Source: Hypomyces perniciosus
Taxonomy: Eukaryota > Ascomycota > Sordariomycetes > Hypocreales > Hypocreaceae
DNA length: 64,000 nucleotides
Direction: 5' to 3'
Assembly: GCA_008477525.1 (NCBI GenBank)
Contig: SPDT01000001.1
Coordinates: forward strand, 310,001 to 374,000
In this document: positions 4,581 to 61,189 of the stretch, in pieces
Layout: each line of letters opens with the position of its first letter
How positions within the stretch are numbered: position 1 is the first letter of the stretch
The notes under the pieces: model-generated
The model's input: only the letters and a program-made list of their open reading frames with translations
What the model was told of the DNA's origin: nothing
Database searches by the model: none
Position numbers and translations under genes: made by a program

Positions 4581-7500
4581 GATTTAACGAGTGTGTATGC
4601 TGTCTGCACCGATGGAGAAGATGGTATTTGCCGATTTTTGGAGGAAGCAGACATCACAGAGTTGGAGTGATACCTTTTTGATGAATTCGAAGCTCGGGTG
4701 CGAGCAAACGGGTAAATACATCATCTGAGCGCAGTGTTGTTTGCCTGATGTCTTTGTTGGCCCGACAAAGGCGGATGAGAACAATAGGAAGCCAAACGCG
4801 ACAATGGCTATTGGGCGGCCAGCTGCATACGTGAAGGTACAGTCAAATACCAGCAGTGTTGGCTTCATGAATTGAATTCCGAACAATGGCGGCGACTTTT
4901 GAGAAATCTTTTTGACTTGTATCCGCGCCTTTTACTTTTATTTACTTGTAAGGTGTTGACTTGACCTTGCATTAATGGACGGGTTAACTTCAAGGGGAAC
5001 GTGAGGATTTCGACCAATAGAAATAAAAAAGGATTAATAGAGTCATTGGGCTAAGTCATGAGAATATGTATTGAAATTGAAATATGGTATATTATTTCTT
5101 CCATGTTTACAACTTTCCGTGTTTCCTTTTGTATGGATCTTAAAGCTCCTACCTAGGTACCTTGCAGTCGCGCATGACTTTGACATTTAATGTCCGGATG
5201 GGTGATGATTTTATTAACCTCTTTTCATGTAACCTTAAAAAGAAGATATCCAGAGGCCTTAATACGGATCCTCCGAACGATGATATATACTCTCGTGACT
5301 CCGTTGGTCATGGCCCCTAACACTGCAGCTCGCCTCTCTAATGAGTGACTGTAGAGGGGTGATGAGAGCGCTGTTCCGATGATGGAGCAATCCCAACTGG
5401 GATATGAACAACAGCCTGCTTTTCTTCCTACTTTGCCTCCTTGGCCGGGAGGACCGAGCCTTGTGGACGCATGGATAGGACGGCATGGCTCCTGTCCGCG
5501 GCCGCCTGCAGAAATAGATGCGTGCTACGAAGTACACACATTTCACAGCTTCATTTCAGCCTCGTCGTTTCCGAGGCGACTTCGCGGGAAACAACAAAAT
5601 CCTTCGCGATGCTATGCAGCAGTCTATGACGCCGAAAAGCCCATTTTTACGGGGAAGTGTGTATGTACCCTTCTCTACTCCGTATGGAAGTCAGCCACGT
5701 TGTTGGAGGGATCCCGCGGCTCGCTGCATTACCAGTTTCTAGGTTTGCTCCTGTTGTGTAACTGCGATAATTGAGCATCATGGTATTACTAGTACTCCGT
5801 ACATAGATTGCAAAAACCGGGAGGAGAAGGATTCAATGCCGCCCCGATGCTGATCCGCAGATGTCCGAAGGTTCGGAGATGTGTGGGTTGGTTGGTTTGC
5901 CGTTCCTAATGCTGATCGTACCTTTTTAATAATAGCCAATACGCACGAAGTACGAAGAAGTCTGCTGGTAGAATGCAGCAGACATTGAACGAAATAAAAG
6001 GTCTAGTGGTATTGAGCTGGCATGCAGAATGCATGCACGTCCTGTACTCTGTACTGTACGTTTTTGAAGCGTAGCGAGGCCTCCCCATGTGCAAACACAG
6101 CACAAACATGCGTGGTGAGACCGGCTGACAGAGCCTTCAGGGCTTGCAGCATGTAGGATTTTGTTTGCTCCTGATCCTCGCAGTGCTCCTTGGATGCAGA
6201 TGCGGTCAGCCGTTTAGGCAATCCTAAGGAGAAAGGATAAGCAGTTAATGGCCAATCTTGTCCCGAAGTCCGGAGGCATGGACCACCGCCAATTCGTCCT
6301 GTAAGCGGCGTTGAGGATCAACAGGGAATCTGCAACCCAGTGCCAGTGGCTGGAATCAAGCATGTTCATGCATGAAGAAAGACAATAATATGAAACGAAC
6401 CAGATCGGCCTACTCCGGCATGCGACTGGACAAATTGTACAAGATATTGCTCATCTTTCGGGCGAGATGAGCACGATGACTACCGGGTATGGATGGTCGC
6501 TAATTCCGCTCGCTGTCCATCTCCACAAGCCTCGTGGACATCATGCTGTGTTCGCAGGAGATGTACGAGTACGAGTAACACACACCACCAACCAGCCCGA
6601 CTCAAGAAAGCGGCCACGCAATACTCGTACGGCCAAGATGGGCGAAGGATTCTGAACAATGCACTCACGCCTTGGCTTTGAGCGAGCACCGTGTTGCTTT
6701 TTGTGCGTACATCACAGATTGGGTACGGAGTAGACTTTCTGAGACACGATGGGCTGGTGCTGAGAGCGCTACCCCATATGTGGATTAAGGTAGACAATCG
6801 AGATACGCGATGGGCGAAAGATGCCATAGGTCCAGGTTGACACATCTGCACTGCACTCAAGCCCTTGTCGACTCCTCCCCACGTTACTCGTACCTGTCCC
6901 TTCCACTTTTCCCTCATATGCCGTACCAATCAGCGGCTAGCCGTTGATGAAGTCCAGTCCACTCCTTTGGCGACGATAGCGAGAAAACGCGGGCATGCGT
7001 GCGCCGTGGCTGAAAGTTCAGTCAAACGGATTAGCCGTTGGCTGAAGAATTGGCTGGCAGTGCTACTCCTATGCATGATGCGTTGTAGTATACTCGTAGA
7101 TGGCCAGAAGGAAGCCATCTCAACAGCTACGCTGTCCGTTTTTGGCTGTCTTGCAGCTCCTGCTTGACGATGGGATGGAGGATGACGGCTGATGCTTTGG
7201 TCTTCGATGCCGATCCGCGAGTGCGCCCGTGTCTGTGCGAGACACGACGACTGTCAGAAAAGCTGAGGTCACGATGGACGATGTCCGTTCCGATTTGGCG
7301 ACCCTGACTGTGGCTGGCTTATTTACTGTGAGTGGGGAAGTGATTTTATTACCCTGGTCAGTTTTCGTGGGGAGCCGTGATGACCGAGAAATTGAGGATG
7401 TCTTGAACATGATAACGGAAAGGTTGAGACGCTTTTGTATGTGTGTCTGTGTCGTCCGTGTCCGTGTCCGTGTCTTGTGTGTGTCTGTGTGCATGCATTG

Positions 7501-10234
7501 TGTGTGTTCGTAGTATCTATGTTATGTGCGTTTGCAGGTTGCAACGTCCCTGCATACACGAATACATACATACATGGATACAGCAATTGTAGGGACTTCA
7601 TCGCCTTTGATCAGCCTTATGTCGGGGGACGGGGCACGCACAGAGAGAATAAAGTGCCGATGTTCTCCGTAAAGCCGATGCCTAATGCTTGTTGTTTGAT
7701 CGACAGCGGGCAAACTTTTGATGACGATGTAAGGGACAAAAGGGCGTACGGGGGGGCCTGAGAGACTAGTAGTAGTATATGCACTGTATGTACTCCGTAC
7801 TCTGCATGCACAAGGCCCGGGGATCAATTGATATCGACAGCAGGCCCATTCTCCATGTACGGACGGAGTACGAGTAGTACCTACGGTAGAAGTACTACTA
7901 CTACTAGGTACTAGTATCAATAAACTGGTAATAAAAGACCCATTGGCATTCTCGATTGAGAGTCAACCGCGAGATTGGCCCATGTTGGTGCAGGCTTCTT
8001 ACACGTGCGATGACATGCCGTACTACCAACTTATAAATCAGTAGTGTTGAATTGCTTCGGGACTACGGAATACTAGATACTAGACTAGACGCCTCTGTCA
8101 TTCTGAAGAGATTTGTGCACACAAGCGAACAAAAGAACCACCTCATTTGCCATTCGTGTTGCTTGACTCAATGTCCCTATTTGGACACTTGAAATCTATC
8201 AACGCACAACTACTCCGTATCTGGGGCCTATTATTGATTAGTACTCGTACTCGTAGTACTACTACTAGCAGTACTAGTAGCGATTGTTTGTGATGGGCCT
8301 GCGTCTGCAATGCGTCTCGGTCCGCCATCTCCCTTTGTTCCGATCACTGATCTGATGAGAGGACATGCATGATGCTACCAGGCATTTCACCGCAACGGAC
8401 CATACCCGCCTCAATTTTTCTCTCTACGAGTACGAGTATGTATGTGCTCCGTGCTCTGTACTCCGTACAACAAGGACCCAACTGTGGTGCAAAAAGCATT
8501 TACGAGTACACACACCGCACAAATTACTATCAAATTGTTCTTGTGGTCTTGGTAGTGAAATTGCCATGTACTAGTGGATACATGCCATTGTCCGGAGGAC
8601 TTGGAGCGTTAAATGGTCTAAATTACACCTCGTAAAAACACATGGATACTGGATAAATTCAGAGGCATTTGTCACCAGCCGCATCCCGCTGTCATATTCA
8701 CTCCTCGTACGAGTATAGTATATAACGACTGACAATCACCTTGACAAAGCATCATTCATTGTCCGCCTATCTCCGAAAGCAAACGGATGAGCCGGACAAG
8801 GATCATTGGCGGACGTCCAGGGGGCGACGACTCGGACGGGGAATGGTCCTGCATGAATGGTGGGCTCTGGATGGGATGGATGGCCCATGGAAGCCCTAAT
8901 GCATCCCGCCATCGTTCTTCAGTCAATGCCAACCCCTGAACGTGGTGGACTGGACGGTTCAAGCTGACTGATTTGGGGGCTGGGTCCCTTTTGACGGGTC
9001 GGCTGCAGGCTTGTACGAAAGCGCAGCCCACAGACTCCGGACTAGCATCGCTGATGATCCATCACATCAACACAAAAGGCCTCCCCCCTGGTCGCCTTGT
9101 TCGCCGTCTGGGGCCCCCAAGTTCCGCAGCCCAACTGCCAACTGCCAGTCTCCCACCAGAAAGGCACAATGGGTAGCGGGGACTGTGGCTGGGATTTTAC
9201 GTGTAGAGACCCGCATACGCGTCGGCCGAAATGGCACTGGAGCTGTGGAAGCAGACCTAAAAAAAAAATAAAAAAAAAGACGGATATTTCCCGTCCGCGT
9301 AGTAGTAGTATTACCTACTTGTACGAGTATGGGTTGATGTTTGTAGTACTACTGCTACTAGTACGAAGGTGTTGTAGATCCTCGCCGGCGTAGTATTATG
9401 CAGATGAGGAAAATAAAACTAGACCTTCCAGCATCTTAATTAACAGCACACCCCCTGACCTCCTCCCCAGTCCCTGCCTGGCCCTGCCTTGTCTTGTCTT
9501 GTCTTGTCTTGTCTTGTATCGTACGGAGTATCAGACAGAGCAATTGTGCATTTGTCTGGTGCGCCTCCTGTTTTGCTTTTTCCTTTAACTTGGAGCTACG
9601 ATATGACGCTATTTTTGCTTCTTTCGCTCTGACGCTGTCAAGGTACGTCTAAACGGCCATTTCCCACGACGGCGCAAACACTTTTTCCCTTTCTTCCTCT
9701 GCCTCTGCCTCCTCCTCCTCTGGACTGGTCTGGCCTGCTCGTACATACAGCGTACACTCGCCTGCTCCTCGCGACCTCACGATCGTTATTCGGAGATCCC
9801 CCCCGCGGTTTCGGCATCATCATCGTCATGTGTGTGTAGAGGTGGTACCACCAGCACGTCACAGTCACGGATGCACGCACCAGCTTCTCTTTGTGTCTCA
9901 TATCCTCGTCCTCGTCCTCTTTAGAGCCATGTGCTTGCGGGCCTGCCGTCCTTCCAGCCGTTCGATTGTGTCCCGATCCTGCTTGTACTAATTGCAACCA
10001 GGGGCTCTCTCTCCGTGACTCTTGTCTTTGGAGCATAGCCTCGGCCCCATTGCCGCGAAATTGCTGTCTGGCACATCGCCTCTTTGCATCAACCTCCTCG
10101 GCGAGTCGCAGAACCTGATAGGGCGCGAACGGTGCTGCCTGTCGCCATAATTCTATAACTCCGCAATACCCACGTCGTACCCGATCGAGAGTTCGTCCCA
10201 TAATCATTGCAGAGATCACACCACCACCACAGCA
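4581..10234. other. 5.6-kb gene-free, repeat-rich region
   Basis: Many ORFs of 60-235 codons are present, but none shows a recognisable domain, a convincing splice pattern or coding-like composition. The region carries seven exact copies of TACTCCGTA/TACGGAGTA, many TACGAGTA and TAG/TAC trinucleotide runs, a GT/GTC-rich stretch at about 7438-7511 and a CTTGT tandem repeat at 9488-9517. The last few hundred bases are probably the promoter and 5' leader of the gene at 10235. A lineage-specific gene or long non-coding RNA cannot be excluded. Confidence 0.6.
9488..9517. repeat. CTTGT tandem repeat, six copies
   Basis: Six uninterrupted copies of CTTGT, followed closely by a TACGGAGTA word at 9522-9530. 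Located about 0.7 kb upstream of the large scaffold-like gene. Confidence 0.95.
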
Positions 10235-13200
10235 ATGACGAGCCCGACTACCGAGTCTCGGCCAACGTCGAGCATCGCATCGCCGCGTTTTATGAGATCG
10301 CGAACCCAAAGCATTTCCAGTGACAGACCCTCGACCATCAGTCATGGCCTCTCGTTGCCGCCCCTGTCTGTATCACCAGAGGCAGCGTTCATTGCCGCAA
10401 CCGCAGCCTCCCAGATTATCACCAACGACCATGACAACCACGCGGGCACCTGGTACGATCAAAATGGCATTGAGCCCTCGGGAGAGACTGCCTTGGTGTC
10501 CCCTGCTGCTCTACACCTAGTCAACGGCTTCCTTGATCAGCTGCTTTTCAGCTTCCTTCAAGTAGCCAAATCCACTTCCCTCGCCACCCTCCGACCTGCC
10601 GTTTCTCAGGTTCTTAAACCGAAGCTTGGCAACGACACCATTCACAACGCCAATGAGGAGCTGCGCGAATACCTTGGTGGCGCTGATGAGGAGGACTATG
10701 CGGAACCTCAGAATGCCCGTGATTGGGATGTCGAGCTGGTCTGGAAGCGAACGAGACTAAGATGCATGGTATACTCCTCTCTCGGAGACCTCGAGGAAGA
10801 AGACGAGGATATGTACATGGAGCAAGAGAATCTCGAGATCGGCGCTCACGAGCAGAAATCCGACATCATTTCTCCGGCTGTGGCCATCTTTCTGACATCA
10901 GTCATGGAATACATGGGGGAGCTGACCCTCACCGTGGCTAGCCAAGCAGCCTGCCAGAGGGTGCGAGCGAAGATTGAAAAGGAAATCAAAGACGGCACAC
11001 GCAACCCCAACGACCTCGCCGACCGGATTGTAGTGGACGAGATGGACATGGAGCGAGTTGCTCTTGATCGAACCCTGGGGCGGTTGTGGCGTGGATGGAA
11101 GAAGAGAATGCGCACGCCAGCTGTCGAGTCCCTTGGTCGGGCCTTGTCTGTCAGTCATTCAAGACAGGAAAACTATAACGCTGAGTCGCATGCTCCAAGG
11201 ACTCCTAACAGTGATGGGGGGAGGCTTGAAGATCATGTCGAGGACCCCATTGCTGAGGATATCGATCCTATGAACATTCCCTTGCCCATGGGCGACAATG
11301 ATGTCGAGGAGATAGAAGTACCTGGGCTGGCGCGCCACAGCGACAATGAAGAAGATGAGGACGAGGAGCCTAAGCATGAGATTCGTCGCCTCAAGTCATT
11401 TGTTGTCTGCTCTGCTGCGGCCCATAGTCAACGGACGCCAGCTCCTACCCTGCGACATGCCGTCACACCTCACAAGAGATCCAATTCGTTGCCTACGTCT
11501 AAGCGAGCAGTCTTTTATGCCATAGCTCGGCCTAGCACGAGGACTGGAACGATTTGCACACCAGTTGATTCGAGTGATGCTGAGGATAGCCCGGCCAACC
11601 AAAGTGCGGAAGTAGTTGACATTCAAGAGATCTCCCAGACCAAGAAAGCAACCCCAAGGCCGACACTCGCAATGAACACTCGACTGGCAAGAATCAGTGG
11701 AAGAGATGACTCGACAGTTGCATCTAACGATGCGGATGAAGTTGCTACATATGAGAAAGCTGAGATTTTAACTTCGTCTCGAGTGTCAGTTGGTAGCACG
11801 TCATCTCGTTCTGTCTCAGATTCCGGCAAAGCTATTCACGTCAGAAGATCGTCGAGTGTGCATTCCGCACGCATCATCGACGTTCCTGCGCCTAGAAGTC
11901 CTATTGCTCCGCATTCGCCATCCTTTGAGACGACAGAACGTCCTCGGCCCGTCAGTCTGTCAAGCTCTAGTCCTCTTGTGCAATCTTTTAGTGCAGAGGA
12001 GTCACGGAGAGCGAAGGCTACTGACCATGGCGCCCGGGCGGCGACGACGACTGTCTCGTCGACAAGGTCTTCGATTGACAGGGTGAAACCCTCATTGCAA
12101 AATGCAGCCACCATCTCAGAATCTGAAGAAGAAGTGGACGACCGCTCTGCTAAAACCAGTGGTATTGCTCATGCTGCCCCATCACCACGCAGTAAAGATC
12201 AACCTAGCCATGTTGCCCATCTCTTGCAGACAAATTTTAGACAAACAGATAGGACATCGCCCTCTCCCAAGGCTGAACAAGCCCCTCCCGGCACAAAGAT
12301 GGCGACGCTCAACAAGGCTGGTTCATTTGCAGAAGATCAAAGTCCGGAGATTCCCCGTAAGTCAACGGGTTACTCCAGCTGGCAGCCTCCCAAAAATGAA
12401 GGCAAAGGAATGGCAGTGGTTGAGCGCACGAGATCAAAAGAAACTGAGGAAGAAGTGACAGTGCCCTTGCATTCCATTGTGCCACCCCGACAGATCCACA
12501 CCTCTGGATCTTCTGGATCTTCCGCAACTGGACGACTCAAGGCACTCCGAACGTCAGAGGATTCTCCAAGTCGCGCTGAGTGTGTGGCTCGCAACTTTGA
12601 GGAATTAATTCAGAGCAACCAGACCATCACGTATACCCTGACACCAGAAAATATGCGCGATATCGATGTACGTGCCATCTCCTCCCACCTTCTAAACTAT
12701 ACTGACAATTGTGCAGGTCAAAACGTCTCTTGATACCCCTGTGGTGGCGAAGTTCTCCCGCAAAAGTGAAGAAATCCGGGGTGGTCCCTCATCTGAGACC
12801 AACGGATCGCCCTCGGGTCAACGTGCGACACCTACAGGTTCTCAAACTCCTCCTGAACACAAACCCACTGGGCCCATTCCTCGAGCACCAGTAGGCGCGG
12901 CCATTGCTTCGGGTCGCGTAGGGGGACCTCAGGCTCGGGATGCGCGTGGCCGCATTGAATCTGTGGCAGACATTGCTGAGTTCATCAAATCCACTGGACC
13001 GCCCAGTGAGAGAGGACCAGTTTCTTTGCGGAGTGTCCACGTCTCAAGTAGTCCAGTGAAGGGAAGCATCGACTCTCGCCGAGTATCCATAACGAGCAAC
13101 CACAGCAATAACAGTCGCTATCGCTACCAGCCCCGAGATGCTCGTGCCGACCGCAGAGCCGACAACTCAGACCTCATCGACTTTATTCGTCAGGGTCCGC

Positions 13201-14120
13201 CAATCTCTAGTAACAACCAACACCGAATTCCCCGTCACGTTGCTCCCTTCCGCAACACCATGGATTCCGAGATTATGTCTGGCGCCGCTGGGGGTAAGGC
13301 CGTCGATGCCGTCATCCCTGAAATTCGATATAGTCAAGCATCGGCTAATTTTACTGAAACTTCAGCGCCTTCGATACACTCCTCTATCAACTCCAGTTCC
13401 GCCCTACTTAAGAACAAGGGGTCTTCCAAAGTGAGTAAAATACTCGGTGAAGACGAGGGCATGCCCGTACGGAAGACTCGCCGCGTTCGTGATCCATACG
13501 CCATCGACTTCAGCGATGAAGAGGAAGAAGAAGAGGACGAGTTCGAAGCAGCCCCCCGGGCACCTGCTAAGAGGCAGGAGAGTTTGGCGGAGTTTCTGCG
13601 AAACTACGACCCTCCACCCGAGCCGCCTTCTCCGCCATCGAAGATGGTTCCCAAGAAGAAGACAAGCGCCCCAAGCCTTATCGGCAGATTCACCCGCGGC
13701 GGCTCCAAGGACCCTAATGCCACTTCTGCCGCCGAGGCACGCTCGCTAAACAGCCGTACCAGCAACGTGGGATTTGCTGCCAACGAGACACGATCCTTGA
13801 ACAGCCGCGTCGGCAGTAAGCATATCCCAATTCAAGTCAACATGCCGCCTGGTTACGACATGTATGGACCTATCACCGGCAATCCTAGCCAGCCTCGGGT
13901 GGGATCCACGACTGGATCTGCCGGCAGGGTTCCGATGAAGAAGTTCGAACCCCGAGATTCTACCCCCGTCCCTGTCGGCCAGACTTCCGATCTAGCTGCG
14001 TTCCTTCGGGATTCAGAGCCACCTCCTGACAAGGCTCTTCCTCCGACTCCCATTCGCCAGGACGACACCAATGGCTTTTCAAAGATGTTTGGTCGAAGAA
14101 ACAAGACCTCTGTGGCATAG
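10235..14120 (+). CDS. Large serine-rich low-complexity protein with four LxxFLRxxxPP repeats
   Basis: Predicted protein of 1278 residues. Exons are 10235-12667 and 12717-14120, with a 49-bp intron (GTACGT...GTGCAG, phase 0) after the residues NMRDID. I do not recognise a named family with certainty. The N-terminal 80-190 residues look folded and helical (segment AALHLVNGFLDQLLFSFLQ and a following VELVWKRTRLRC). After that the chain is mostly Ser/Pro/Glu-rich and probably disordered, with acidic runs. In the C-terminal third a short motif recurs four times, at nucleotides about 12967, 13168, 13581 and 13987: ADIAEFIKSTGPP, SDLIDFIRQGPP, SLAEFLRNYDPP, SDLAAFLRDSEPP. No signal peptide or membrane span, so a cytosolic or nuclear scaffold or regulator is my inference. 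Some fungal annotations may label such proteins Flo11-like on composition alone; nothing here indicates an adhesin. Confidence 0.8.
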
Positions 14121-15455
14121 ACTGTGATCATCTTGCGATCCGGCCTATCAAGACATCCTGGAGGCGACGTGCTTCCACCAGAAGTGATGGAAAAGTTTCA
14201 CTTGTAATTTTTTGGAATTTTTATGACGCATATACCTTGATTGCTGATGCTATTTGGACAACAATGGGGAATCTGGGTGCTCCTAATGATTATGTGTTTT
14301 TTGTATCTCTCTCCCTCTTACTATTTATCGTCTTTCCTATCTCCTTTTTTTTTTTTTATCTCGATCCATCTATCTGCAACGCTTGATACCCCCCAAATCT
14401 AAATCGCTACCAACCTAATTATCAATCTTACCACCGGGGACAAATGGGATGAAAAGTCGTTGTGGCTATTTTAACAACAGTGTGTATGCATGGGATGAGC
14501 AGAGGGAGGAATATAGTATATAGTTTTTTTTTGGCCAAATTGGGGTGGAAGTTTCTGGGAGTATATGAAAGCTTGGATGATCAAAGGGGGCTGGATGTGT
14601 GTTGCGGCTTTTCTCTCGTATTCACTTGGCTTTGGCTAGCTCTTTTTATCTATCAACCCCGAAAATCTGGCCCGTTAGATGCCTCTCTATTTATCATATG
14701 AATGCAATGGATATGTGTTAATTGAAGAAGAGGCACTTTGTGTGCATGTCATGGATTCGCTTGGTGTTGCTATTGACATTCTCAAGACTCCATGGTATCC
14801 CAAAGAAATAGTTGAACAAACAATAAGCATTACTTGAACTAAGTGATCTCAATCATTTTCGCATGAGCAGTCAATAATGCCGCTTCCACTCCCCAGTCAT
14901 GCAAAATCTTCATATAGCACCGTATATATGCCCTCTTGTGATCCGATGCTCATACCAGCCCCGCCAGGCTCACAGCGTACAAACCACACCTCCATCATAG
15001 CCCATTGCTATTATCACTCTCGCATACCCAGTAGTAAGCCAAATAGAACAAAGAAACAAAAATAGAAGGATGTGCAAGAAACTATAACGCGATCAAGGAC
15101 GGTTCACCCGTTGATGCTTGTTAAAACAGCAAGATGAGAAGCCAAAAAGGAGAAACATAGACATGAGAACAAGAAACTCGAGGTGACGCTGTTTCCAGCC
15201 GCTCTCACCGACCAGAAACCAAAACTCTACGCCACGCTAAATAGATGTATGAAAATCTCCAACGCAGCGTGGACCTACAGCTAAACAGCTTATCGAAGTG
15301 CAACAAGTGCGGGTAACCCAGTACGAGCAAGAGACTGGACCCTTGGGGTGCACTTTTGAGCACGGCCGTACATGCGATTGTTGAAAAGGCATGTCTCCAA
15401 GAAAATGTAGGGCCAGCTATGACCCTAAGAAATGACGACTCGAGAATGCACCGGC
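14121..15455. other. Intergenic between convergent genes
   Basis: 3' flanks of the scaffold-like gene and MAF1. Contains a T-run near 14346-14357 and scattered ORFs under 100 codons without features. No gene seen. Confidence 0.6.
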
Positions 15456-16530
15456 CTAAATTTCCATCCGGCCAGCAATATCCTCGCTCATGCATCTCTC
15501 GCGTTTTGCATACATATCTTCATCGTCGTCGTCATCGTCCAGCGGTCCGTCGTCAATCAAGTCATCATCTGAAAATTGCACGAGGTCACCGTCCTCGCCG
15601 CGGTTCCAGTACAGCCCATCATCGAGAGCATCTTCATCGTCTTCGAATGGAGGTACCAGTTCCGCGTCTTGGTCACCGAGCCAGTACTTGGCGCGCTTCT
15701 TTGCGACATCCTCGTCGGTGGCGATATGCCGTTTGCTTAGCCCGGCCTTGGTAGGTCGAAGCGTTGGACTCTGTGATGAGATGACCGGAACAACGCGGAC
15801 GTAAAGATAGGCAACCCGCTTCAGTGCGCGACTGAAGAAGAAATAGTGAACTGCCCAGATGGCACTCTCATCTTCCTCAAACGGGTCGATCTCCGGATGG
15901 TAGCTGAAGATGGTACACTCATTAAGACGCATCTCCTTGTTTATGAGCGACCAGCATTGTGGTCCCCACTGGGAGTTTAGGTCGCTGGCCAGGGAAGAAT
16001 CATATGACGTTCCCTCGAACCCGGGCCGCACATTGTGCAAGATGGAATCCAGGTTTGCCATGACACGCTTCAGGTTTCTCTCGCGCTTGAAGTCCCCGGG
16101 TCGTAACACATGGGAGAAATCGTAATGAGGATGACTCGCGTTCAGCGTCGCAATCATATAGGCGAACGTGCGACGACTGGAGAGTTCGGACAGGGGACCA
16201 AAAGCGCTCGAGTGCGAGAAGAGTTGCATACTGCGCGACGTCGCAAGCATGTGCGCACGATCGGGCGGTGACAGACTGGCGCCCAACTTGAGCAGCGCGG
16301 CATGTTGTGAGCTCAGATCCTTATCAATGTTCTTGTATAGCTTCTTGTCCGACCCGGTCGATTTCGTGGTATAGAGATCGCATCCGCCGGTAACGTTGCA
16401 GTCGGGTGTGTTGAAGTTGAGCGCGCTCGTAACGGCTTCGAAGTCTTGTACTGGAAGATACTACACAACGGAAATCGTGTCAGTATGGAATGCCCGAGTT
16501 GTGCTGACCGACGGCAGTGCTTACCTTCAT
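15456..16530 (-). CDS. MAF1: MAF1, repressor of RNA polymerase III
   Basis: Maf1 binds Pol III and represses tRNA and 5S transcription when nutrients are short or TOR/PKA signalling falls; it shuttles between cytoplasm and nucleus. Exons (minus) are 16530-16525 and 16460-15456, giving 336 residues. The first coding exon holds only two codons (ATG AAG), then a 64-bp intron (GTAAGC, branch ACTGAC, acceptor GTGTAG), then YLPVQDFEAVTSALNF. Maf1 hallmarks: the N-terminal A box with CNVTGGCDLYTTK; the central RRTFAYMIATLNASHPHYDF; and the B/C boxes SLINKEMRLNECTIFSYHPE and WAVHYFFFSRALKRVAYLYV. The C-terminus is long and acidic (runs of Asp), as in other fungi. The segment SSRRTFAY contains a basic-S/T motif, but I cannot assign phosphosites. 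Confidence 0.95.
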
Positions 16531-17817
16531 CTTGGCTGCTCGCTATTAACATGAACGTCACAGCGTGATGAGCGATGAAGAGTGTGTCAGCGCAAGGAGA
16601 ACGTAGCGTGAATGCGGCGAAAGCGAAGTCGGGCTGCGATGGTTCAATGTCGTAATCGCTCCGGGGAAGAAGCGGGAGTGCGTCTCAAGACCGAACCTAT
16701 TGATTAGTCCAACGATAAACAAGGCCAGGCTCGGGTCTAGTAGTGTTGAGAACCGGTAGGCATTGGCACGATTCACGATGGACGAGATGAGATGCAAGCG
16801 TGTTGAGTTGGTGATGGAGGAGGGATTCCGGATTGGGGGGGAGAGCGAATGGACGGGCAAAGGCCGGGGGGTGGTGACATGCAGCTGGTTACTGGTACTG
16901 GACCAGCTGGGGAGGATCACTGGCGTGGCAGACAGTGGTGTGACATCAGTGGAGCTGTGCTTCGTAACAGTAAGTAAGACAGCGCTGCGGGTGGAGGACA
17001 CCTGTAAGCAAAAGCGTGCAAGTTGGTTGGGTATTAACGCAATGCCGACGCGCACATCCAACTCGTCCGTCCCGCTCCGATCGCCCGTCTTCAGCTGGCT
17101 GGCAGTTAAGTTGACATTGTTAGTACTTCGCAGTAAAAGCCCATTGGCGAGAGGAGAGTGCTGGAGTGCATAGATTAGGCAAGCCGATTTGCTGGCGCCA
17201 ACCTTGGCCCATCTTGGCCCTGCGACGAATGACATGGCATCATGGTGCCACGAGCGACAACGACAAGAGGGAATGGGCTGACGGTAGAAATCATTAATGT
17301 TTGTAGTAATATCTCGGGTTTGCCTCCGAGCATCTTCTGCTTCGCTCTTCGGCTGCGCTGAGATGACCATCGGACACAGCCAAGTGACCACGCAGGCCCG
17401 CCGACTCCGGGGCACCTCGCGCCGCCGTTTGGCCCCGTGAAATGCTTCTCTTGACATGAGAGAGGGTGGTTTGCCACCTTCCAAGATCTATACACATAAA
17501 AAGAAAATAGGGCTGTGATCCTCTCCCAAAACACCTCTTGCACCCCTCTCCTTATGTGTCCTCTCTTCCCATCGAAGAGATGCTCAGTTTCCTGAGTCTT
17601 TCGGTCAAACAAGACCCACCTCTCGCAGGTTCGAAATCATGGTCTCGGCCTGTAAAGTTAATAGTCAACCGTCAGTCAACATTATCCCCTATGCCTTGGT
17701 CCTGGTAGGAGACTTCGGGTTGAGGCCTGGCGGTCTGTAGGGAATCGGCCGGCGCTGGCAATGCATCAAGGAGCCGAGAATGGCACGAGTTCGTCGTATT
17801 CATTCATTCACGCGCAG
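16531..17817. other. Intergenic: MAF1 promoter region
   Basis: Upstream of MAF1 and downstream of the AP-1 sigma gene, both on the minus strand. A 308-codon minus-strand ORF at 16558-17484 is open, but it is low-complexity Ser/Thr/Arg text without any domain and directly abuts the MAF1 start, so I treat it as leader/promoter sequence. Nothing else recognised. Confidence 0.55.
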
Positions 17818-20332: not shown

Positions 20333-20516
20333 AATGAAGGCTGAGGAGCGTGGGGGGGATCTAGAGGCCTTGCTTCAGCTTTCAGGGATTACCATCTTTT
20401 TCTTTCTTTCTTTTTGGATTTCGAGGCGATACGGTCTTTTGTTTATTAAACAGCGAGCATCATGCATGGACATCACAGCCTTAATTGTGGGAACAGTGGC
20501 TTGACCAAGTGTCATG

Positions 20517-32749: not shown

Positions 32750-32750
<1 letters not shown>

Positions 32751-50088: not shown

Positions 50089-52512
50089 ATGCCTGGCGCC
50101 ACAGGTCACCGCTCGCGCGGCTCCGAGGAATATGGCGTCTACGACGATGCCAAAACCTACTATGCGTCCGAGGAGCGACACAGCAATCGATTGGGCGTTC
50201 GCAACCGCACCTATTCTCAGGTGCGCACTGTTCATTGACGCTGCATTTCCGATCCTCTCGATCTAACTGTGTGCAGAACAGCTTGATGAAACAGCTTGAG
50301 AGACTTGGGCTTCGAGAGCCATTCCGACGTGGAAGCCACGGTGAGTTGGGCTGGTCAATGAAGCGGGGCTGACTATATACTGATTCGTCTCCTTTTAGAT
50401 GAGAGCACCATGGACCAGAATCGCCGATTCCTCATCCAGGTCGAGCCAACTCTGGAGAACCTGAAAAACCAAGAGGACACCGATGGAAACATGCAGATTA
50501 CCATTGAGGATAACGGCCCCAAGGTCATCTCCTTGCGAACCGCTGCCTCTGCCGGTCACAACCGTTTTGAAGTTCGGGGGACGTATATGCTGTCCAATCT
50601 CCTGCAGGAGTTGACGTTGGCCAAGGAATTTGGACGGAAGCAGATCATTCTGGATGAAGGGCGGTTGAATGAGAACCCTGTTGACCGCTTGTCCCGGCTT
50701 ATCCGGGACCACTTCTGGGATGGCTTGACGAGACGAATTGATGCGTCTAGCATCGAGATTGCTGCCCGCGATCCTAAAGACTGGACGGATGACCCTCGTC
50801 CTCGTATCTATGTCCCTATTGGTGCTCCTGAGCAGTATGCATACTACAAGAAGGTCGCCGAGAACCGGCCGGAGCTTCGACTGGACGTTCAGCAGCTGCC
50901 CCAGAAGATCACTCCGGAGCTGATTCGGGATATGAATGGTAAACCAGGTTTGCTAGCTGTTGAGGTGGAAGAGGTTGAAGAGGAGACTGAGGATGGCACA
51001 AAGGTGAAGGGCTTGAGAGGATTGCCATTCGTTGTCCCAGGCGGTCGTTTCAACGAGCTTTACGGCTGGGACAGCTACATGGAGTCTTTGGGCTTGTTGA
51101 TCCATGACAGAGTCGACCTGGCCAAGTCCATGGTGCTCAACTTCTGCTTCTGCATCCAGCACTATGGAAAGATTCTCAACGCTACGAGGTCGTACTACTT
51201 GGGACGATCGCAACCTCCCTTCTTGACCGATATGGCACTCCGAGTGTATGAGAAGATCAAGCACGAGCCAGACTCCAAGGAATTCCTGCGACGAGCGATC
51301 CTTGCCGCCATCAAGGAGTACCACAGTGTCTGGACGAGCGAGCCTCGACTGGACCCGGTGACTGGTCTGTCGCGGTACCGACCTGAAGGTCTCGGCGTCC
51401 CTCCCGAGACAGAAGCCGGTCACTTTGTGCACATCTTGAAGCCTTACGTCGAGAAGCACAAGATGGAATTTGAAGAGTTTGTCCGTGCCTACAACTACGG
51501 CGAGATCAAGGAGCCGGAGCTGGATGAGTACTTCCTCCACGACCGAGCTGTTCGTGAATCGGGACACGACACGACGTACCGTTTGGAGGGCGTCTGTGCC
51601 AATCTCGCCACTATTGACTTAAACTCGCTTTTGTTCAAGTACGAGACGGACATTGCACGAACAATTCGAAACCTCTTTGACGACAAGTTGGCCATTCCTG
51701 CTGAGTTTTGCCAGGGAACGCCTTACCAGCCTGGCGAGGTTGTCTCATCGGCTGTTTGGGACCGACGAGCCAAGCGCCGGAAGCTGACGATGGATAAGCT
51801 CATGTGGAATGAGGAAGAGGGCATGTTCTTTGACTACGACACTGTCAAGAAAGAGCGGTGCAAGTACGAAACTGCTACGACACTGTGGGCTCTCTGGGCC
51901 GGAATTGCAACGCCCAAGCAGGCTGCCGATCTAGTGAAGAAGGGCCTGCCTCGGTTCGAAGTCTTTGGTGGTCTGGTTGCTGGAACGGAGAACTCGCGAG
52001 GTGCCATCGGACTGGAGCGGCCCAACCGGCAGTGGGACTACCCATACGGCTGGGCTCCGCAACAGATCTTGGCCTGGACCGGACTGCTCCGATACAGCTT
52101 TACGGAGGATGCTGAGCGACTTGCGTACAAGTGGCTGTTCATGATCACCAAGGCGTTTGTCGACTTCAACGGAGTGGTCGTCGAGAAATACGACGTGACG
52201 CGACCGGTGGACCCTCACCGAGTAGATGCCGAGTACGGAAATCAGGGTCTTGATTTCAAGGGTGTTGCCAAAGAAGGGTAAGTCATCATCGATGGGCGAG
52301 GCCTATTTTTCATACGATCGCTGTGAGATTCGGGTGTGCTAATGCAGGATGGATATAGGTTTGGATGGGTCAATGCCAGCTACGTCTACGGGCTGCAGAT
52401 CGTGAACGCGCACATGCGACGAGCGCTTGGAACGCTGACGCCGTACCCGACTTTCATCAAGGCGATTGAGATGAACAATGAGAAGGCTTTGGCTGATCTG
52501 ACTCTGCCATAA
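50089..52512 (+). CDS. NTH1: Neutral trehalase (GH37)
   Basis: Cytosolic enzyme that hydrolyses trehalose to two glucose during spore germination and recovery from stress. Exons: 50089-50220, 50277-50340, 50399-52277 and 52359-52512, giving 742 residues. The N-terminal regulatory part has the PKA-type site RRGS (61-64) and a calcium-binding, EF-hand-like loop [12 protein letters not shown] (92-103), as in fungal neutral trehalases. The two trehalase signatures are [14 protein letters not shown] (279-292) and [10 protein letters not shown] (610-619). The last splice gives [14 protein letters not shown]. The start [20 protein letters not shown] is the first ATG giving a typical N-terminus; the frame is open further upstream. 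Activation by PKA phosphorylation, 14-3-3 and calcium is known for the family; here it is inferred from the conserved sites. Confidence 0.96.
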
Positions 52513-53034
52513 AGACGGGCAACATCTTGAATGGAGACGATATCCGGCGCGGAGAATATAAAGGCTGATGAGAGTGCTTTTTTCGGAACAGTGTCATTCA
52601 TGATTCAGCTGGGGATGAAGGAGGCTCGCAGCACGGATTAGAACGAGCATCCTCAGGCAATGTTTGTCAGGCTGGTTATTGTCTAGGCTTACTTAATACA
52701 TCAATAAATGGTCATATTTTGTCGGGTGGCAGCCTGCACATGTCGGACAATGGCACCAGTTTCAGGACGCAGATCTTCCATGTGATTGTGCCTCTTGTGG
52801 CTGAGGGGTGTGTAGCATGTACTGTTCAAGCAGGATGACGTTATGGCCCAGCTGTTGGAGAACCTTGTAGATCCTGCGTACCGAGCTTGAAGTTCAGGAT
52901 AAGGACGGACATATCAGACAGAGCAAGTCCTGTATACAAGATGCGAGGGATGGTTATTTCTAAAGCATCCAAGGCTTGTCAATAACTATTATGTAAATGT
53001 CAGTGGAATGATTGTCTGCGAGTGCGTGTATATA

Positions 53035-53058
53035 AGTAGTAGTAGTAGTAGTAGTAGT
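53035..53058. repeat. AGT trinucleotide microsatellite
   Basis: Eight uninterrupted AGT units. Confidence 0.9.
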
Positions 53059-53396
53059 ATACAGTATCTGGGGTAATCTGAATTGGTGCATTCACATGCA
53101 AACAGCTCCGGTGCGCCGGTGCCGTTGACACGGGGGAAGAGGTGGGGAATGGGGAGATGGCGTATTGCCGAATTGGATTTGCCACTGATGGACAGATTGT
53201 AGAGTAGACTTTGTTTTATTCGAGAAATCATCATCACCAGAATTAGATAAATCGATGGAATGAATGAATGAATGATGGAGGTGTGTACTCGGTAATACTA
53301 GTTGGTAGATGTCAAACCACTAACCGGGCATACGGAGAGGCACGGAGACGATGCTTAGGGAAGAGGCGCCAAAGACGCAATAATAATTCCGTCTAT

Positions 53397-53454
53397 GTAC
53401 TTCGTACTCCGTAGTAGTATAAGGTACGAAGAAATAGTACTCTGTACGAAGTAC
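53397..53454. repeat. Inverted repeat built from TACTTCGTA words
   Basis: Left arm 53397-53413 (GTACTTCGTACTCCGTA) and right arm 53438-53454 pair in 14 of 17 positions around a 24-bp spacer, so the stretch could form a hairpin or cruciform. Both arms contain TACTTCGTA (or its complement), and the left also TACTCCGTA. Confidence 0.85.
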
Positions 53455-53830
53455 CTCTACCACAGTCAATCGATGACGCGGGGCTTCTGAGACCAATGCT
53501 GTTTCGGTACCTCGGCCAATGGCGGCCAAAGGTTGCGCAACTTCCGGTCCCTTGAGCCGAGCTTCGATGCCGCGCGCCGCCTCCGGTTTTCGACTCTGCC
53601 TACTTCGTACATACTGCTAGTACTAACTCCTCCTCGACTCGTACGCTCACACCCCCTGCCGAATAGCCAGAGCCATAGCCCATAGCCCATAGCCATGGAC
53701 ATGATGCTAGAGCAAGTGTTACTGGCTGGCTCAGACTCACGCTGCCCGGGCCATTCCGGCAGCACGAGGGGCGTTGGCTTTCCCTTGTCCCAAGTTCCGA
53801 GGTGAAGCTGAGGTACCAATAGCCAATAGT

Positions 53831-53857
53831 GACTGACTGACTGACTGACTGACTGAC
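53831..53857. repeat. GACT tetranucleotide microsatellite
   Basis: Nearly seven uninterrupted GACT units. Confidence 0.95.
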
Positions 53858-54078
53858 ACGAACCGTCAAGCATGGCCGTGACCTGTGACTCTTCTTCTTT
53901 GCCCTCCCCCGGAATTCGACTCTTGATTTCCTTCTCTCCCTTTTCCTCATCCCATCCGTTCTCTGTCCTTGATATACCTGATCATTGGATACCCATTGGT
54001 CTCTCTCCTCTATACTCCCCCTTCCCTCTCTCCCTTACATAGATCGCATCTACACGTATCATCCTCTTCTTGCCCATC

Positions 54079-55917
54079 ATGGCGTCCAATAACATGATCA
54101 GCCCGGCCATCAACCCGGACATTGAAGACGAGCTCTTCCTCAAGGAGGTCGAGGAGGTCAAGGCCTGGTGGCGTGACTCGCGATGGAGGCACACCAAGCG
54201 GCCCTTTTCCGCAGAGCAGATCGTCTCCAAGCGCGGCCATCTCAAGATTGACTACGCCAGCAATGCCCAAGCCAAGAAGCTGTGGAATATCCTCGAGGGC
54301 CGCTTCAAGGTGAGCCATTCCTTGCCCAGGTAGCAGGCGAAGCATCAATCGCTAACCACCATCAACTACCGTATAGAACAAGGACGCCAGCTACACATAC
54401 GGCTGCTTGGAGCCCACAATGGTTACCCAGATGGCCAAGTACCTCGACACCGTCTACGTCTCGGGCTGGCAGTCATCGTCGACTGCCTCTTCCTCTGACG
54501 AGCCCGGCCCCGATCTGGCTGACTACCCTTATGTAAGGCCTCCTCGACAACCACTTACAAGTCCCAGCTCGCTAACCTTGCCATGTCATGACAGACCACC
54601 GTCCCTAACAAGGTCGGCCACCTCTTCATGGCCCAGCTCTTCCACGACCGCAAACAACGCCAGGAACGCCTCAGCGTCCCCAAGGCCCAGCGCGCCAAGC
54701 TAGCCAATGTTGATTACCTGCGTCCCATCATTGCCGACGCCGACACCGGCCACGGCGGCCTGACAGCCGTCATGAAGCTCACCAAGCTCTTCATCGAAAA
54801 GGGCGCCGCGGGCATCCACATCGAGGACCAGGCCCCCGGTACGAAGAAGTGCGGCCACATGGCTGGCAAGGTCCTCGTGCCCATCAGCGAGCACATCAGC
54901 CGTCTAGTTGCCATCCGTGCTCAGGCCGATATCATGGGCTCTGACCTCATTGCTGTTGCTCGCACTGATGCCGAGGCTGCGACCCTGATTACTACCACCA
55001 TTGATCCGCGCGATCATGCTTTCATTCTGGGTTCCACAAACCCTAATCTTCAGCCGCTGAATGACCTTATGGTCGCCGCTGAGCAGGCCGGCAAACAAGG
55101 CGATGAACTCCAGCGCATCGAAGACGAATGGGTTGCCGCCGCAGGCCTCAAACGCTTTGACGAAGCTGTCATCGTTGCCATCGACGCAGGCTCCTCCGCC
55201 AATGCCGCGAAGATCAAGAGCCAGTACCTCGCTCAAGCCAAGGGCAAGAGCAACGCCGAGGCCCGCGCCATTGCGAAGGCCTTGCTTGGTGTAGATGTCT
55301 TCTTCAACTGGGATGCGCCCCGAACGCGCGAGGGTTACTACCGCCTCAAGGGCGGCTGTGACTGCGCCATTAACCGTGCCATTGCGTATGGTCCTTACTG
55401 CGATGCCGTCTGGATGGAGAGCAAGTTGCCCGACTATGCTCAGGCCAAGGAATTCGCCGACGGTGTACACGCCGTCTGGCCCGAGAAGAAGTACGTTTCC
55501 CTTCCCTTCTCTTCCTCTCTACTTTACATGATCCCATAAGTAACTAACATTCAATCAAGGCTCGCGTATAACCTCTCCCCTTCATTCAACTGGAAAACCG
55601 CCATGCCCCGCGCCGATCAGGAGACTTACATCACCCGTCTCGCTACTCTCGGCTACTGCTGGCAATTCATCACCCTCGCAGGCTTACACACCACCGCCCT
55701 GGTGAGCGACCATTTCGCCCGCGCATACGCCCAACAAGGCATGCGCGCCTACGGTGAACTCGTTCAAGAGCCCGAGATGGAGCTCGGCGTCGATGTGGTT
55801 AAGCATCAGAAGTGGAGTGGTGCCAACTACGTAGATGAGCTGCAGAAGATGGTGACCGGTGGTGTGAGCTCTACGGCTGCCATGGGTAAGGGTGTGACTG
55901 AGGATCAGTTCCATTAA
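54079..55917 (+). CDS. ICL1: Isocitrate lyase
   Basis: First enzyme of the glyoxylate shunt, cleaving isocitrate to glyoxylate and succinate. It is needed for growth on acetate and fatty acids and often for host infection by fungal pathogens. Exons: 54079-54309, 54377-54532, 54595-55490 and 55560-55917, giving 546 residues. The catalytic signature KKCGHMAG (Cys215) is present. Other active-site blocks are [31 protein letters not shown] and [13 protein letters not shown]. The eukaryote-specific insertion of about 100 residues between the barrel strands is included. The C-terminus EDQFH has no classical PTS1, so peroxisomal import would need another signal. It lies tail to tail with SNF1, 523 bp between stops. 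Glucose repression via CreA/Snf1 is known for the family; I did not verify sites. Confidence 0.97.
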
Positions 55918-56440
55918 ATCAACTTGCTCCCCTCATTGGATGTGGAAGTTATGGTGCCGAAGGAGGAGAGTAGGTGAGATGTTTGAGATGATATATCATG
56001 ATTGCTTGAGTACAAAAGCAAAGCAGAAGAGCTGATGGCTTCTGCATGTACATTTAATATCCTCATGGGATGTTTTGTCTCTCTTTTTTCAAGTAATTGC
56101 ATAGTAGAATGAAATTGTATTTCGTTATCATACCATCACCGAGCGTTTGCTTGGAATACTCGAAAATGCCATGATATTGATATCAAGACTAACTTCTTCA
56201 ATCCCCAACCCGCGAAGCGTAAATAAATGATGCCAACCCCGGTTCTAGTCCCTTGCGCCAGCCCCAATCATAGCGATGGCTATGTGTGTGTGTGTGTGTG
56301 TGTACGAACTCGATTCCTGTAGCCCGACTCCTCATGGAAAATATACACAGTCCGCCTCTCATTTACCTCAAAACCTCAAGATGACCCGCCCTTCCCCTCT
56401 CTTTTCTTCCAAATATCCTTCAATTCAATTCAGCCCCATA
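55918..56440. other. Intergenic between convergent ICL1 and SNF1
   Basis: 3' flanks of both genes, with a TG microsatellite at 56283-56302. Nothing else recognised. Confidence 0.65.
56283..56302. repeat. TG dinucleotide microsatellite
   Basis: Ten uninterrupted TG units downstream of SNF1. Confidence 0.9.
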
Positions 56441-58800
<2,360 letters not shown>

Positions 58801-61189
58801 AGCGAGTTGAATGTCGAAAATCCGCTTCGTAAATATTTTTTTTTATTCCGGCTCGGTGTCAATCAATGTCAGGCGCGGAGAAATGTGGATGCGTTGGTGT
58901 TGCGTTCGGTTCGTGGGACAGTAACTTGTGACTTGTGACTTGGCGGAGGGAGTGACGGAAGAGGTGGAAAGATGGAGGGGTACGGAGTAGGGAAAACGTC
59001 ACTCACTATTATAGCCCGTGCATGTACTTGGTACTCTGCAGGTACTCTGGAAGAACTGCCAGCAGCTGAGGCGCACCAGTTACAGCGCAAAGCCCTACGC
59101 TATTGCACTGAAGCGTTGAGAACGACTTCTTTGATGAGAGTTGTGTGTTGATATACATACAAAGTACCAAGGTACGGAGTAATGGGCCTGAGGCAAGACT
59201 TGATCCATTGATGCCATCATTGCTCCGTAGCACATATATATATATAAATATATATATCCAGACTCCTCTGCTTCGTAAATTGGGCCATTTTACATCTTCT
59301 CCTCCAAGCGCCCTCTTCCTCCTCCTCTCAACAATTTCCCAACCAATGTCAATCAATTCACGTGTTTGTCTGGCCTATCATTCATCTAGCGCCGACTAAT
59401 GCTTCCTCAAGAGGCAGTGCTTTGGCTACTGCCTTCTCGTCAACATCCTCACCAACGTCCCTTTGCGTATTATCCTTATCCTTATCCTTGCTTTCAAAGT
59501 TTTCATATAGGTACTATTATTATATAAGCCGTGAGGCGGACGGGTCAAGATTAACAGCAGGAAGAATACTAATCTTCCGTCTATGTCGAGGGCTCTGCTA
59601 TTGCCTCGAGGTCTTCGTTCATCTCAATCGAACCGACTCGTAGATTTAGAGTAATGCTATTATTGAAACAGACAAAAATTGCTATTGGCACAGCTATAGC
59701 CGGTGTACCACCCAACAATTCTCAACTTCACACTCATATCATATAACACTCAACACAACGCCTATAGCTAGCTGTCAATAATCCATTTGCTTTTAATGGA
59801 AATCGCTGCGCCGTTATTGCGATAGAAGTCTTATAAGTAAGAGATTAAGTCATTAATAGAGTCGAACAAAATTAAACAGCGGCGGGGGTAGGATTTCGTA
59901 GTCGGATTTAGGCATATCTAGTAGGTCAGATAGCAACTGTGGCGGAGGTTACGGAGTAGATTTTATCCTCCCAACCAGGATCGCCAAACTACTCCAACAA
60001 AAGGTCCAACGGGAGATCTATTCCAGCCAGAGGTGCCTGAGATGTAGAAATATTGTAATTGCAATAGTTGAGTGTAGTATTGAAGATGAAGGAATTGGAA
60101 GCTAGGAAGATTCTCGCGGGTGGTGCATGGGCCATATCTGTGCCAATAGCCATATTGTCTGTTTCAATAGCATTACTCTAAATTTAATGCTGATCAAGAC
60201 CCTTAGAAAGACAGAGGTGTGAATCTTCCTGAGGATGACAACCCCTGGGCTCCACCCTATCAGCAACTACTATGTATATGGACAACAAGTTGGCCATCCC
60301 CCTTCCTGGCGATTCCGCTCCACTATACGAAGTATAACACCCGCGTATCTGGTGACAGTGAACGACCTTCTACTTCACCTTCACACTCTATGAATTCAGG
60401 ATACCCTGCTCCAATTGGGCCTTTGCCTTGGATTTTGCGAGTTTGACAGAATAAGACTACATTTGCTTTACCGTCTGATGTTGCCTACTGTTTGTTAAAG
60501 TTTCAGTTGTATTTGGTTCTTGTTTTGCAGTCAGATATTTACGAAACTATATCAGTTATTGGAATCCGCGGTCTCAATCTTGATGGCTGGTATCCACTCA
60601 TTATACCCATATTCACGCCAAAAAGTCAAGATAAAATGAGAGTTTTTATTTACATGCACATATATCTCTATTTGCACATCACTTTCCCTTGACCACTTAC
60701 GTTTTTTAGGTCGATTATCCACATCCCATACACCGAATCCAATTTCTCATACATGGTAAATAGGGCAATGGCATAAGATGAAACGAAACCAAAGTAACTT
60801 GACAGCTTTACGGCCTTCAAACCCGGCAGCCCAGCAGATAGCTGAATGTGATTGAACCTTTGGAGATATTTTATGCAATCAATATGACTATTTAATTTAA
60901 TTTGCGCATTATGATCAGTCTATATTATGCTATATATTCAGTGATGGGGCGTGTGTGTATGTATGTGTATGTGTGTGTGTGTGTCAATAAGAATTCTCGA
61001 TAAAATGCGAAAAGAAGAAAAGTACTTCGTACCAGCCCAGCAAAAGTGAAGTGCACACCTCAGCAATTGTAGCTGAGAGTGGCCATATTTGCTGTGTGAC
61101 TATACTAATAGACAATTGTAGAGCCCCCCTTTGTTCCATTCCACAAGGCCAGTCCTTCCACACTATCCCAAAGCTGTAACGCTCAAAAC
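58801..61189. other. SNF1 promoter and gene-poor region with MITE-like element
   Basis: Left part is the SNF1 promoter: TACGGAGTA at 58981 and 59173, an AT microsatellite at about 59233-59258. It then holds the MITE-like element at 59649-60178 and AT-rich sequence with GT-rich runs near 60950. Small ORFs only; no gene recognised. Confidence 0.6.
59649..60178. mobile_element. MITE-like element 1 with long terminal inverted repeats
   Basis: 530-bp element. The left end begins GAGTAATGCTATT and the right end is its complement (AATAGCATTACTC). The inverted repeats continue for about 65-85 bp, sharing GAAACAGACAA, GCTATTGGCACAG and CCACCC blocks with a few differences and a 3-bp gap. TA dinucleotides flank both outer ends (59647-59648, 60179-60180), consistent with a TA target duplication as in Tc1/mariner-type elements. 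No ORF of note lies inside, so it is non-autonomous. Confidence 0.85.

What the first reader, a model, noticed from the sequence alone, without database searches (positions are those of the whole stretch)
5676..59958. Dispersed intergenic word TACTCCGTA / TACGGAGTA, 21 exact copies
Exact copies start at 5676, 5793, 6724, 7791, 8211, 8459, 9522, 18862, 24830, 32850, 33390, 33571, 35303, 36115, 36269, 46471, 46478, 53405, 58981, 59173 and 59950. A 9-mer counted on both strands is expected about 0.5 times in 64 kb at even base use, so this is roughly a 40-fold excess. None falls inside a coding exon that I call. Copies often sit next to TAC/TAG repeats or TACTTCGTA. This could be a binding site for an abundant factor, a remnant of a short mobile or expanding repeat, or a replication or chromatin mark.
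Basis: seen in the sequence. Interest (0 to 1): 0.75.

Follow-up and report, generated by a model that had tools for sequence, protein, structure and literature searches.

The report
Promoter-side nine-base word in fungus
One exact nine-letter DNA word recurs thousands of times in this mould's genome and, in the part read closely, sits beside genes where switches lie and not inside them; the same word is already known as a protein-binding site in other moulds, so it is most likely a widely shared gene-control site and not a mobile piece of DNA.

Summary
All 21 exact copies exist (one starts at 36268, not 36269); dinucleotide shuffles expect 0.17. The genome has 8,234 copies in 44.0 Mb against 342 for the reversed word. 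The window is from a Hypocreales fungus near Hypocreaceae.

The word is sharply defined: among TAC-NNN-GTA words in 94 kb only loops TCC (26) and TTC (19) exceed 3; TACTCGTA (22) also stands out. In home-made gene models 0 of 26 copies are coding; 18 lie in divergent and 7 in tandem gaps, none in 11 convergent gaps. Flanks are unrelated. Words overlap 7 bases apart in direct and both inverted orders. This points to a selected transcription-factor site, not a mobile repeat.

It is in print: core of the SomA ChIP-seq/EMSA motif of Aspergillus fumigatus, a motif under UvCGBP1 peaks in a Hypocreales fungus, and an over-represented k-mer and Starship target. Added here: the count, promoter confinement, exact family and overlaps in another lineage.

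The parts
5676..5684 (+). TACTCCGTA copy, divergent gap 3890-10234
5793..5801 (+). TACTCCGTA copy, divergent gap 3890-10234
6724..6732 (-). TACTCCGTA copy, divergent gap 3890-10234
7791..7799 (+). TACTCCGTA copy, divergent gap 3890-10234
8211..8219 (+). TACTCCGTA copy, divergent gap 3890-10234
8459..8467 (+). TACTCCGTA copy, divergent gap 3890-10234
9522..9530 (-). TACTCCGTA copy, divergent gap 3890-10234, 704 bases before the predicted start at 10235
18862..18870 (-). TACTCCGTA copy, divergent gap 18343-19441
24830..24838 (+). TACTCCGTA copy, divergent gap 24319-25334, 496 bases before the predicted start of the SPT16-type gene
32850..32858 (+). TACTCCGTA copy, tandem gap 30571-35281
33390..33398 (+). 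TACTCCGTA copy, tandem gap 30571-35281
33571..33579 (+). TACTCCGTA copy, tandem gap 30571-35281
35303..35311 (-). TACTCCGTA copy, in a doubtful predicted intron of gene model 35282-35759
36108..36123 (+). direct overlapping pair TACTTCGTACTCCGTA (TACTCCGTA at 36115-36123), divergent gap 35760-36665
36268..36276 (-). TACTCCGTA copy, divergent gap 35760-36665
46471..46486 (.). inverted overlapping pair TACTCCGTACGGAGTA (copies at 46471 + and 46478 -), divergent gap 44431-47174
53398..53413 (+). direct overlapping pair TACTTCGTACTCCGTA (TACTCCGTA at 53405-53413), tandem gap 52513-54078 before the isocitrate-lyase-type gene
58981..58989 (-). TACTCCGTA copy, 180 bases before the predicted start of the kinase + UBA_2 gene 56441-58800 (minus strand)
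59173..59181 (-). TACTCCGTA copy, 372 bases before the same kinase gene
59950..59958 (-). TACTCCGTA copy, 1,149 bases before the same kinase gene
1532..63628 (.). 12 sister words TACTTCGTA, starting at 1532+, 5526-, 24813+, 32384-, 32876+, 36108+, 53398+, 53445-, 53601+, 60326-, 61023+, 63620+; none in predicted coding sequence
6564..48553 (.). 18 sister words TACTCGTA, starting at 6564-, 6570-, 6622+, 6885+, 7091+, 7869-, 8242+, 8248+, 8425-, 8431-, 8501-, 8708-, 9322-, 31728+, 36226-, 36232-, 48498-, 48546+; 13 of them in the divergent gap 3890-10234

Best explanation
TACTCCGTA is the core of an abundant cis-regulatory element: a transcription-factor binding site with an imperfect dyad (TAC...GTA around TCC, TTC or TC), present thousands of times and, where gene models could be made, lying in intergenic DNA upstream of genes and kept out of coding and convergent (3'-to-3') DNA. 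A dimeric factor is thought to bind single, direct-overlapping and inverted-overlapping copies and to set the activity of many promoters. Shown here: the count, the sharp sequence limits, promoter confinement in 94 kb, the overlaps. Inferred: that it is bound, that the factor is a dimer, and that the main reader is SomA (Flo8/Som1 type) with its partner PtaB, as ChIP-seq and EMSA indicated for GTACTCCGTAC in A. fumigatus. I hold 'promoter transcription-factor site' at about 0.8 (the figure below) and 'SomA-PtaB is the main reader in this fungus' at about 0.4.
For: 8,234 copies against 342 reversed; GTACTCCGTAC 2,392 against 20. Only TCC and TTC exceed 3 among three-base loops, and single-base variants number 0-5 apart from TTC 19, so sequence and not merely an inverted repeat is kept. 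In 94 kb, 0 of 26 copies are in 40.6 kb of predicted coding DNA; 18 divergent, 7 tandem, 0 convergent, 1 in a doubtful intron. In other held stretches 14 of 14 copies score as non-coding. 23 of 25 intergenic copies are nearer to a start that they precede than to a stop that they follow, against 65% of random intergenic positions (P = 0.002). 11 of 17 promoter-bearing gaps hold the word against 0 of 11 convergent gaps (P = 0.0009), while the reversed words hit one gap of each class. Orientation to the nearest downstream gene is mixed, 15 same and 10 opposite. Literature: SomA motif GTACTCCGTAC in 119 of 476 common ChIP-seq peaks, EMSA with a mutated probe; TACGGAGTA among six motifs of UvCGBP1 peaks in U. 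virens, Hypocreales. The genome has a PtaB-type LIM_bind match (E 4.6e-65), and at C4:899063-899401 a sub-threshold LisH match and a Flo8 LUFS match (E 9.7e-6) fall in one 263-residue open frame.
Against: No binding, accessibility or expression data exist for this organism here. 8,234 copies far exceed the 476 SomA peaks of another species. The word also surfaced under ChIP of an unrelated C2H2 factor whose EMSA-tested site is C/AAGGGG, and an earlier paper ties SomA action in yeast to the Flo8 consensus TTTGC, so SomA may be neither the direct nor the only reader. Convergent gaps are short: with copies within 500 bp counted as one event, their absence there has P = 0.052 for TACTCCGTA and 0.018 for the three words. 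3 of 11 divergent gaps hold none of the three words. Gene models are home-made and untested against transcripts; 2 of 26 copies (36268, 79042) and 2 of 6 outlying TACTTCGTA copies pass a coding score whose false-positive rate is 8%. In 30 kb from two other contigs TACTCCGTA is sparser (3 copies) and TACTCGTA absent. The Flo8 query was recalled from memory.
Confidence: 0.8

Rival explanations
1. A general regulatory or chromatin-opening factor (Reb1/Abf1/Rap1-like in role; those names are recalled) binds the word. SomA, UvCGBP1 and a Starship recombinase merely meet it because it marks open promoters.
For: Thousands of copies, some before broadly needed genes such as the SPT16-type and the kinase + UBA_2 gene. 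The word appears under ChIP of two unrelated factors in two classes of fungi. The Starship paper notes overlap with a predicted C6 zinc cluster motif in A. nidulans.
Against: EMSA with recombinant SomA and a mutated probe speaks for direct SomA binding in A. fumigatus. The TTC and TC sister words lack the CGG triplet that zinc cluster proteins favour (recalled). No accessibility data.
Confidence: 0.3
2. The word is a heptamer microsatellite (TACTCCG/TACTTCG) that spreads by slippage, and most copies are its remnants.
For: 890 direct overlapping pairs against 7 reversed, with runs of several units. Heptamer arrays of the same unit occur in bacteria such as Thiohalocapsa.
Against: Inverted overlaps, 389 and 176 against 0, cannot come from slippage. 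The period does not continue beyond one base on either side in 40 copies. Decayed neighbours are not enriched apart from TTC.
Confidence: 0.07
3. The word is the conserved end or the target mark of a short mobile element, or of Starship insertions.
For: Starship Tardis of A. fumigatus has TACGGAGTAG as predicted target site.
Against: Among 40 copies all flank matches longer than 27 bases are between neighbouring copies of one stretch; identical flanking bases of 4-6 letters 0 of 40, of 3 letters 2 (0.8 expected), of 2 letters 4 (2.7 expected). A 4,001-base stretch with seven copies finds only itself and one 66-base match (that tool skips very common words). A target-site reading needs the word to exist first.
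Confidence: 0.04

Closest known systems
SomA binding motif GTACTCCGTAC, Aspergillus fumigatus (PMC7667024, PMC10900910; passages read)
   Same: The 11-mer contains this 9-mer and lies upstream of regulated genes; 2,392 exact 11-mers in this genome.
   Different: Another class of fungi; no binding data here; far more copies than SomA peaks; TACTTCGTA, TACTCGTA and overlapping pairs are not mentioned in the passages read.
TACGGAGTA motif under UvCGBP1 ChIP-seq peaks, Ustilaginoidea virens (PMC8344781; passages read)
   Same: The identical 9-mer, in a fungus of the same order; 74.52% of those peaks lie in promoters.
   Different: One of six motifs; the EMSA-tested site of that factor is C/AAGGGG, so the word may be a bystander there.
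Starship Tardis target site TACGGAGTAG and over-represented k-mer CTACGGAGTA in A. fumigatus Af293 (PMC12153272; passages read)
   Same: Same word with one flanking base, and genome-wide excess; the authors suggest a transcription-factor site.
   Different: There met as an insertion target; its positions relative to genes are not described in the passages read; no Starship was sought here.

Membership tests
SomA binding motif (A. fumigatus) | Exact 11-mer GTACTCCGTAC present and enriched | tested here: met
   2,392 against 20 for the reversed word
SomA binding motif (A. fumigatus) | Copies lie upstream of genes | tested here: met
   25 of 26 copies of the 9-mer in divergent or tandem gaps, 0 in convergent gaps, 0 in coding DNA, on home-made models of 94 kb
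SomA binding motif (A. fumigatus) | SomA and PtaB encoded in the genome | tested here: inconclusive
   LIM_bind E 4.6e-65 (the match is read through 3 stops, as across introns); LUFS piece E 9.7e-6 over 35 residues beside a sub-threshold LisH; letters could not be fetched
SomA binding motif (A. fumigatus) | Bound by SomA | not testable with these tools
   needs ChIP or EMSA with this organism's protein
Heptamer microsatellite | Direct tandem only, period continues, decayed units common | tested here: not met
   inverted overlaps enriched, no continuation beyond one base, no decayed units apart from TTC; direct pairs do exist
Short mobile element | Shared flanks or target-site duplication | tested here: not met
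   40 copies; 4,001-base search
Starship target site | A Starship flanked by the word | not tested
   no captain gene or element was sought

The most novel reading that the evidence does not exclude
The word is a promoter or chromatin-opening element shared across Pezizomycotina, read by a general regulatory factor not yet recognised as such (SomA-PtaB itself or an unnamed dimeric factor), kept since before the split of Eurotiomycetes and Sordariomycetes, with a small grammar of sister words and overlaps, and used by at least one giant transposon as a landing site.
Probability: 0.3. Interest if true: 0.75.

Novelty: new member of a known kind. Interest (0 to 1): 0.48.

Why it matters
A 9-mer with over 8,000 copies would be one of the commonest regulatory words of a filamentous fungus, yet the passages found leave its general role open, and one paper calls its characterisation of interest for future research. 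The same word with sharp limits in another class of fungi suggests an old shared promoter code. The sites, sister words and overlap types listed here let one accessibility or SomA-removal experiment test it.

Tried and rejected
Longer repeat or insertion: flank comparison, flanking-duplication test and a whole-genome DNA search were negative. RNA reading: no Rfam match at gathering score and no tRNA in the window, and mixed orientation to genes. SomA by LisH: four matches over the cut-off; two of them (L012, L013) look like GID-complex proteins by eye from translations (recalled, not tested further), and C4:5410943 and C10:1549002 stayed unidentified.

Literature: searches at (155 papers, 40 listed; 48, 40 listed; 12; 4; 14; 13; 253, 20 listed; 0). 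Papers opened, passages only: PMC7667024, PMC12153272, PMC11537487, PMC10900910, PMC8344781, PMC12430421, PMC6414702, PMC5063351, PMC7092444, PMC2853525, PMC4631450. Hits in PMC11537487, PMC12430421, PMC6414702 and PMC7092444 are primers, and in PMC5063351 part of a SINE sequence. Other listed papers (for example PMC9581972, PMC8486383, PMC11719998, PMC9783980, PMC4677357) were seen in listings only. A Fusarium graminearum motif paper (PMC2853525) has no string GTA or TACT in its main text, a result against universal use in Hypocreales; its supplement was not seen. The starfish paper is not held.
Full report
Observation. Dinucleotide shuffles expect 0.17. The window is C3:310001-374000 of a 44,002,379-base genome in 23 contigs, which holds 4,129 + 4,105 copies against 154 + 188 of the reversed word. 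A third-order Markov forecast scaled from 94 kb gives about 248, a 33-fold excess.

Organism. The window carries genes with introns by my models: SPT16-type, neutral-trehalase-type, isocitrate-lyase-type, and a kinase with a UBA_2 domain (the likeness to Snf1 is recalled). The 860-residue frame at 10151-12733 matches Cladobotryum mycophilum best (62%), then Trichoderma and Tolypocladium, so this is a Sordariomycete of the Hypocreales near Hypocreaceae. The database label Flo11 on that protein was not tested.

Anatomy of the word. Over C3:300001-394000, among TAC-NNN-GTA words the loop TCC has 26, TTC 19 and no other more than 3. Among two-base loops TC has 22; TA has 10 and the four-base loop CTAG 8, but those words are palindromes counted on both strands. 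Single substitutions of the 9-mer number 0 to 5 apart from TTC. Genome-wide, TACTTCGTA has 5,830 against 461 reversed, TACTCGTA 5,413 against 1,498, GTACTCCGTAC 2,392 against 20. The consensus is TACT(Y)CGTA with an optional middle Y, an imperfect dyad of GTA half-sites. In 40 unique copies the base before is G in 19 and C in 13, the base after C in 19 and T in 12; further out I see no clear continuation of a 7-base period.

Overlaps. Words share their TA ends at a 7-base step: 890 direct pairs (7 reversed), 389 places of TACGRAGTACTYCGTA and 176 of TACTYCGTACGRAGTA (0 reversed for both). Runs of three or more units count more than once. Independent placement would give about 1 per arrangement, ignoring the shared end bases. 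Inverted overlaps cannot be made by slippage.

Where it sits. I wrote a 13-state gene-finding HMM trained on the 94 kb itself: 43% coding. Of 26 copies, 0 are in coding DNA (40.6 kb), 1 in a doubtful intron, 25 intergenic: 18 divergent, 7 tandem, 0 convergent. TACTTCGTA: 0 of 19 coding. TACTCGTA: 1 of 22 coding (outside the window). Neither is in a convergent gap. TACTCCGTA is in 11 of 17 promoter-bearing gaps (8 of 11 divergent, 3 of 6 tandem) and 0 of 11 convergent gaps (Fisher P = 0.0009, not corrected for the shorter convergent gaps). With copies within 500 bp as one event, P for none in convergent DNA is 0.052 (17 clusters) and 0.018 for the three words (23 clusters); for none in coding DNA 6.6e-5 and 2.2e-6. 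These clusters leave out copies inside genes (the intron copy and the one coding TACTCGTA) and copies in the outermost gaps, so the last figure is too favourable. Elsewhere in held sequence 14 of 14 TACTCCGTA copies score non-coding; for TACTTCGTA 2 of 6 score coding. In the 94 kb 2 of 26 copies (36268, 79042) score just above the cut-off, whose false-positive rate is 8%. Three 10-kb stretches of two other contigs hold 3 TACTCCGTA, 4 TACTTCGTA and no TACTCGTA, so density varies by region.

Not a mobile element. Comparison of the flanks of 40 copies gives 21 matches at E <= 0.001; every one longer than 27 bases is between neighbouring copies of one stretch, the rest are sister words, overlapping pairs or repeats of 17-27 bases. 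Flanking identical letters: 4 of 40 at two bases (2.7 expected), 2 at three (0.8), 0 at four to six. A 4,001-base stretch with seven copies finds itself and one 66-base match (very common words are skipped by that tool).

What is known (passages read only). SomA ChIP-seq in A. fumigatus: 476 common peaks, top motif GTACTCCGTAC in 119, EMSA confirmed; an EMSA on the meaB promoter repeats it. UvCGBP1 peaks in U. virens include TACGGAGTA among six motifs. A. fumigatus Starship Tardis has the predicted target TACGGAGTAG; CTACGGAGTA is above the 99.99th percentile of k-mers in Af293; the authors propose a factor site, note a C6 zinc cluster motif and say the repeat is conserved among Eurotiomycetes. 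Against SomA as sole reader: the Flo8 consensus TTTGC and recovery of the word under an unrelated factor. A F. graminearum motif paper shows no such word in its main text.

Reader in this genome. A LIM_bind match as expected for PtaB is at C8:3969937 (E 4.6e-65). A recalled piece of yeast Flo8 matches C4:899297-899401 (E 9.7e-6, 46% over 35 residues), 166 bases after a sub-threshold LisH match at C4:899063-899131 (E 0.97), both in an open frame of 263 residues. This is the likely SomA locus; its letters could not be fetched.

Verdict. A real, strong, promoter-side regulatory word, already in print in other fungi. Added here are a further lineage, a full count, the exact family and its overlaps. 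Mechanism: bound by a probably dimeric transcription factor, SomA-PtaB or a more general one; no binding was shown here.

Noticed in passing
Looks like bacterial heptamer repeats, independent of the fungal word.
   Followed up: partly
window 8054-8120: Matches C5:3580306-3580371 at 94%; no Rfam or tRNA hit. A small dispersed fragment of unknown kind.
   Followed up: partly
G000:C3 about 0.886-1.335 Mb (outside the window): The listings of the 11-mer (mostly plus strand), direct pairs and inverted pairs show none here, and TACTTCGTA (plus strand) only a few. Cause unknown.
   Followed up: no
window and neighbours, intergenic gaps: GTA/TAC triplet runs (32 GTAGTAGTA in 94 kb) are also absent from predicted coding DNA and from all 11 convergent gaps, and absent from 30 kb of two other contigs.
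   Followed up: partly
window 3890-10234: A 6.3 kb divergent gap holds 7 TACTCCGTA, 1 TACTTCGTA and 13 TACTCGTA, before a 1,262-residue gene model whose relatives bear the database label Flo11.
   Followed up: partly
window 58801-64000 and on into L009: A 9.7 kb stretch without predicted genes, GC falling to 0.415 at 60-64 kb.
   Followed up: no
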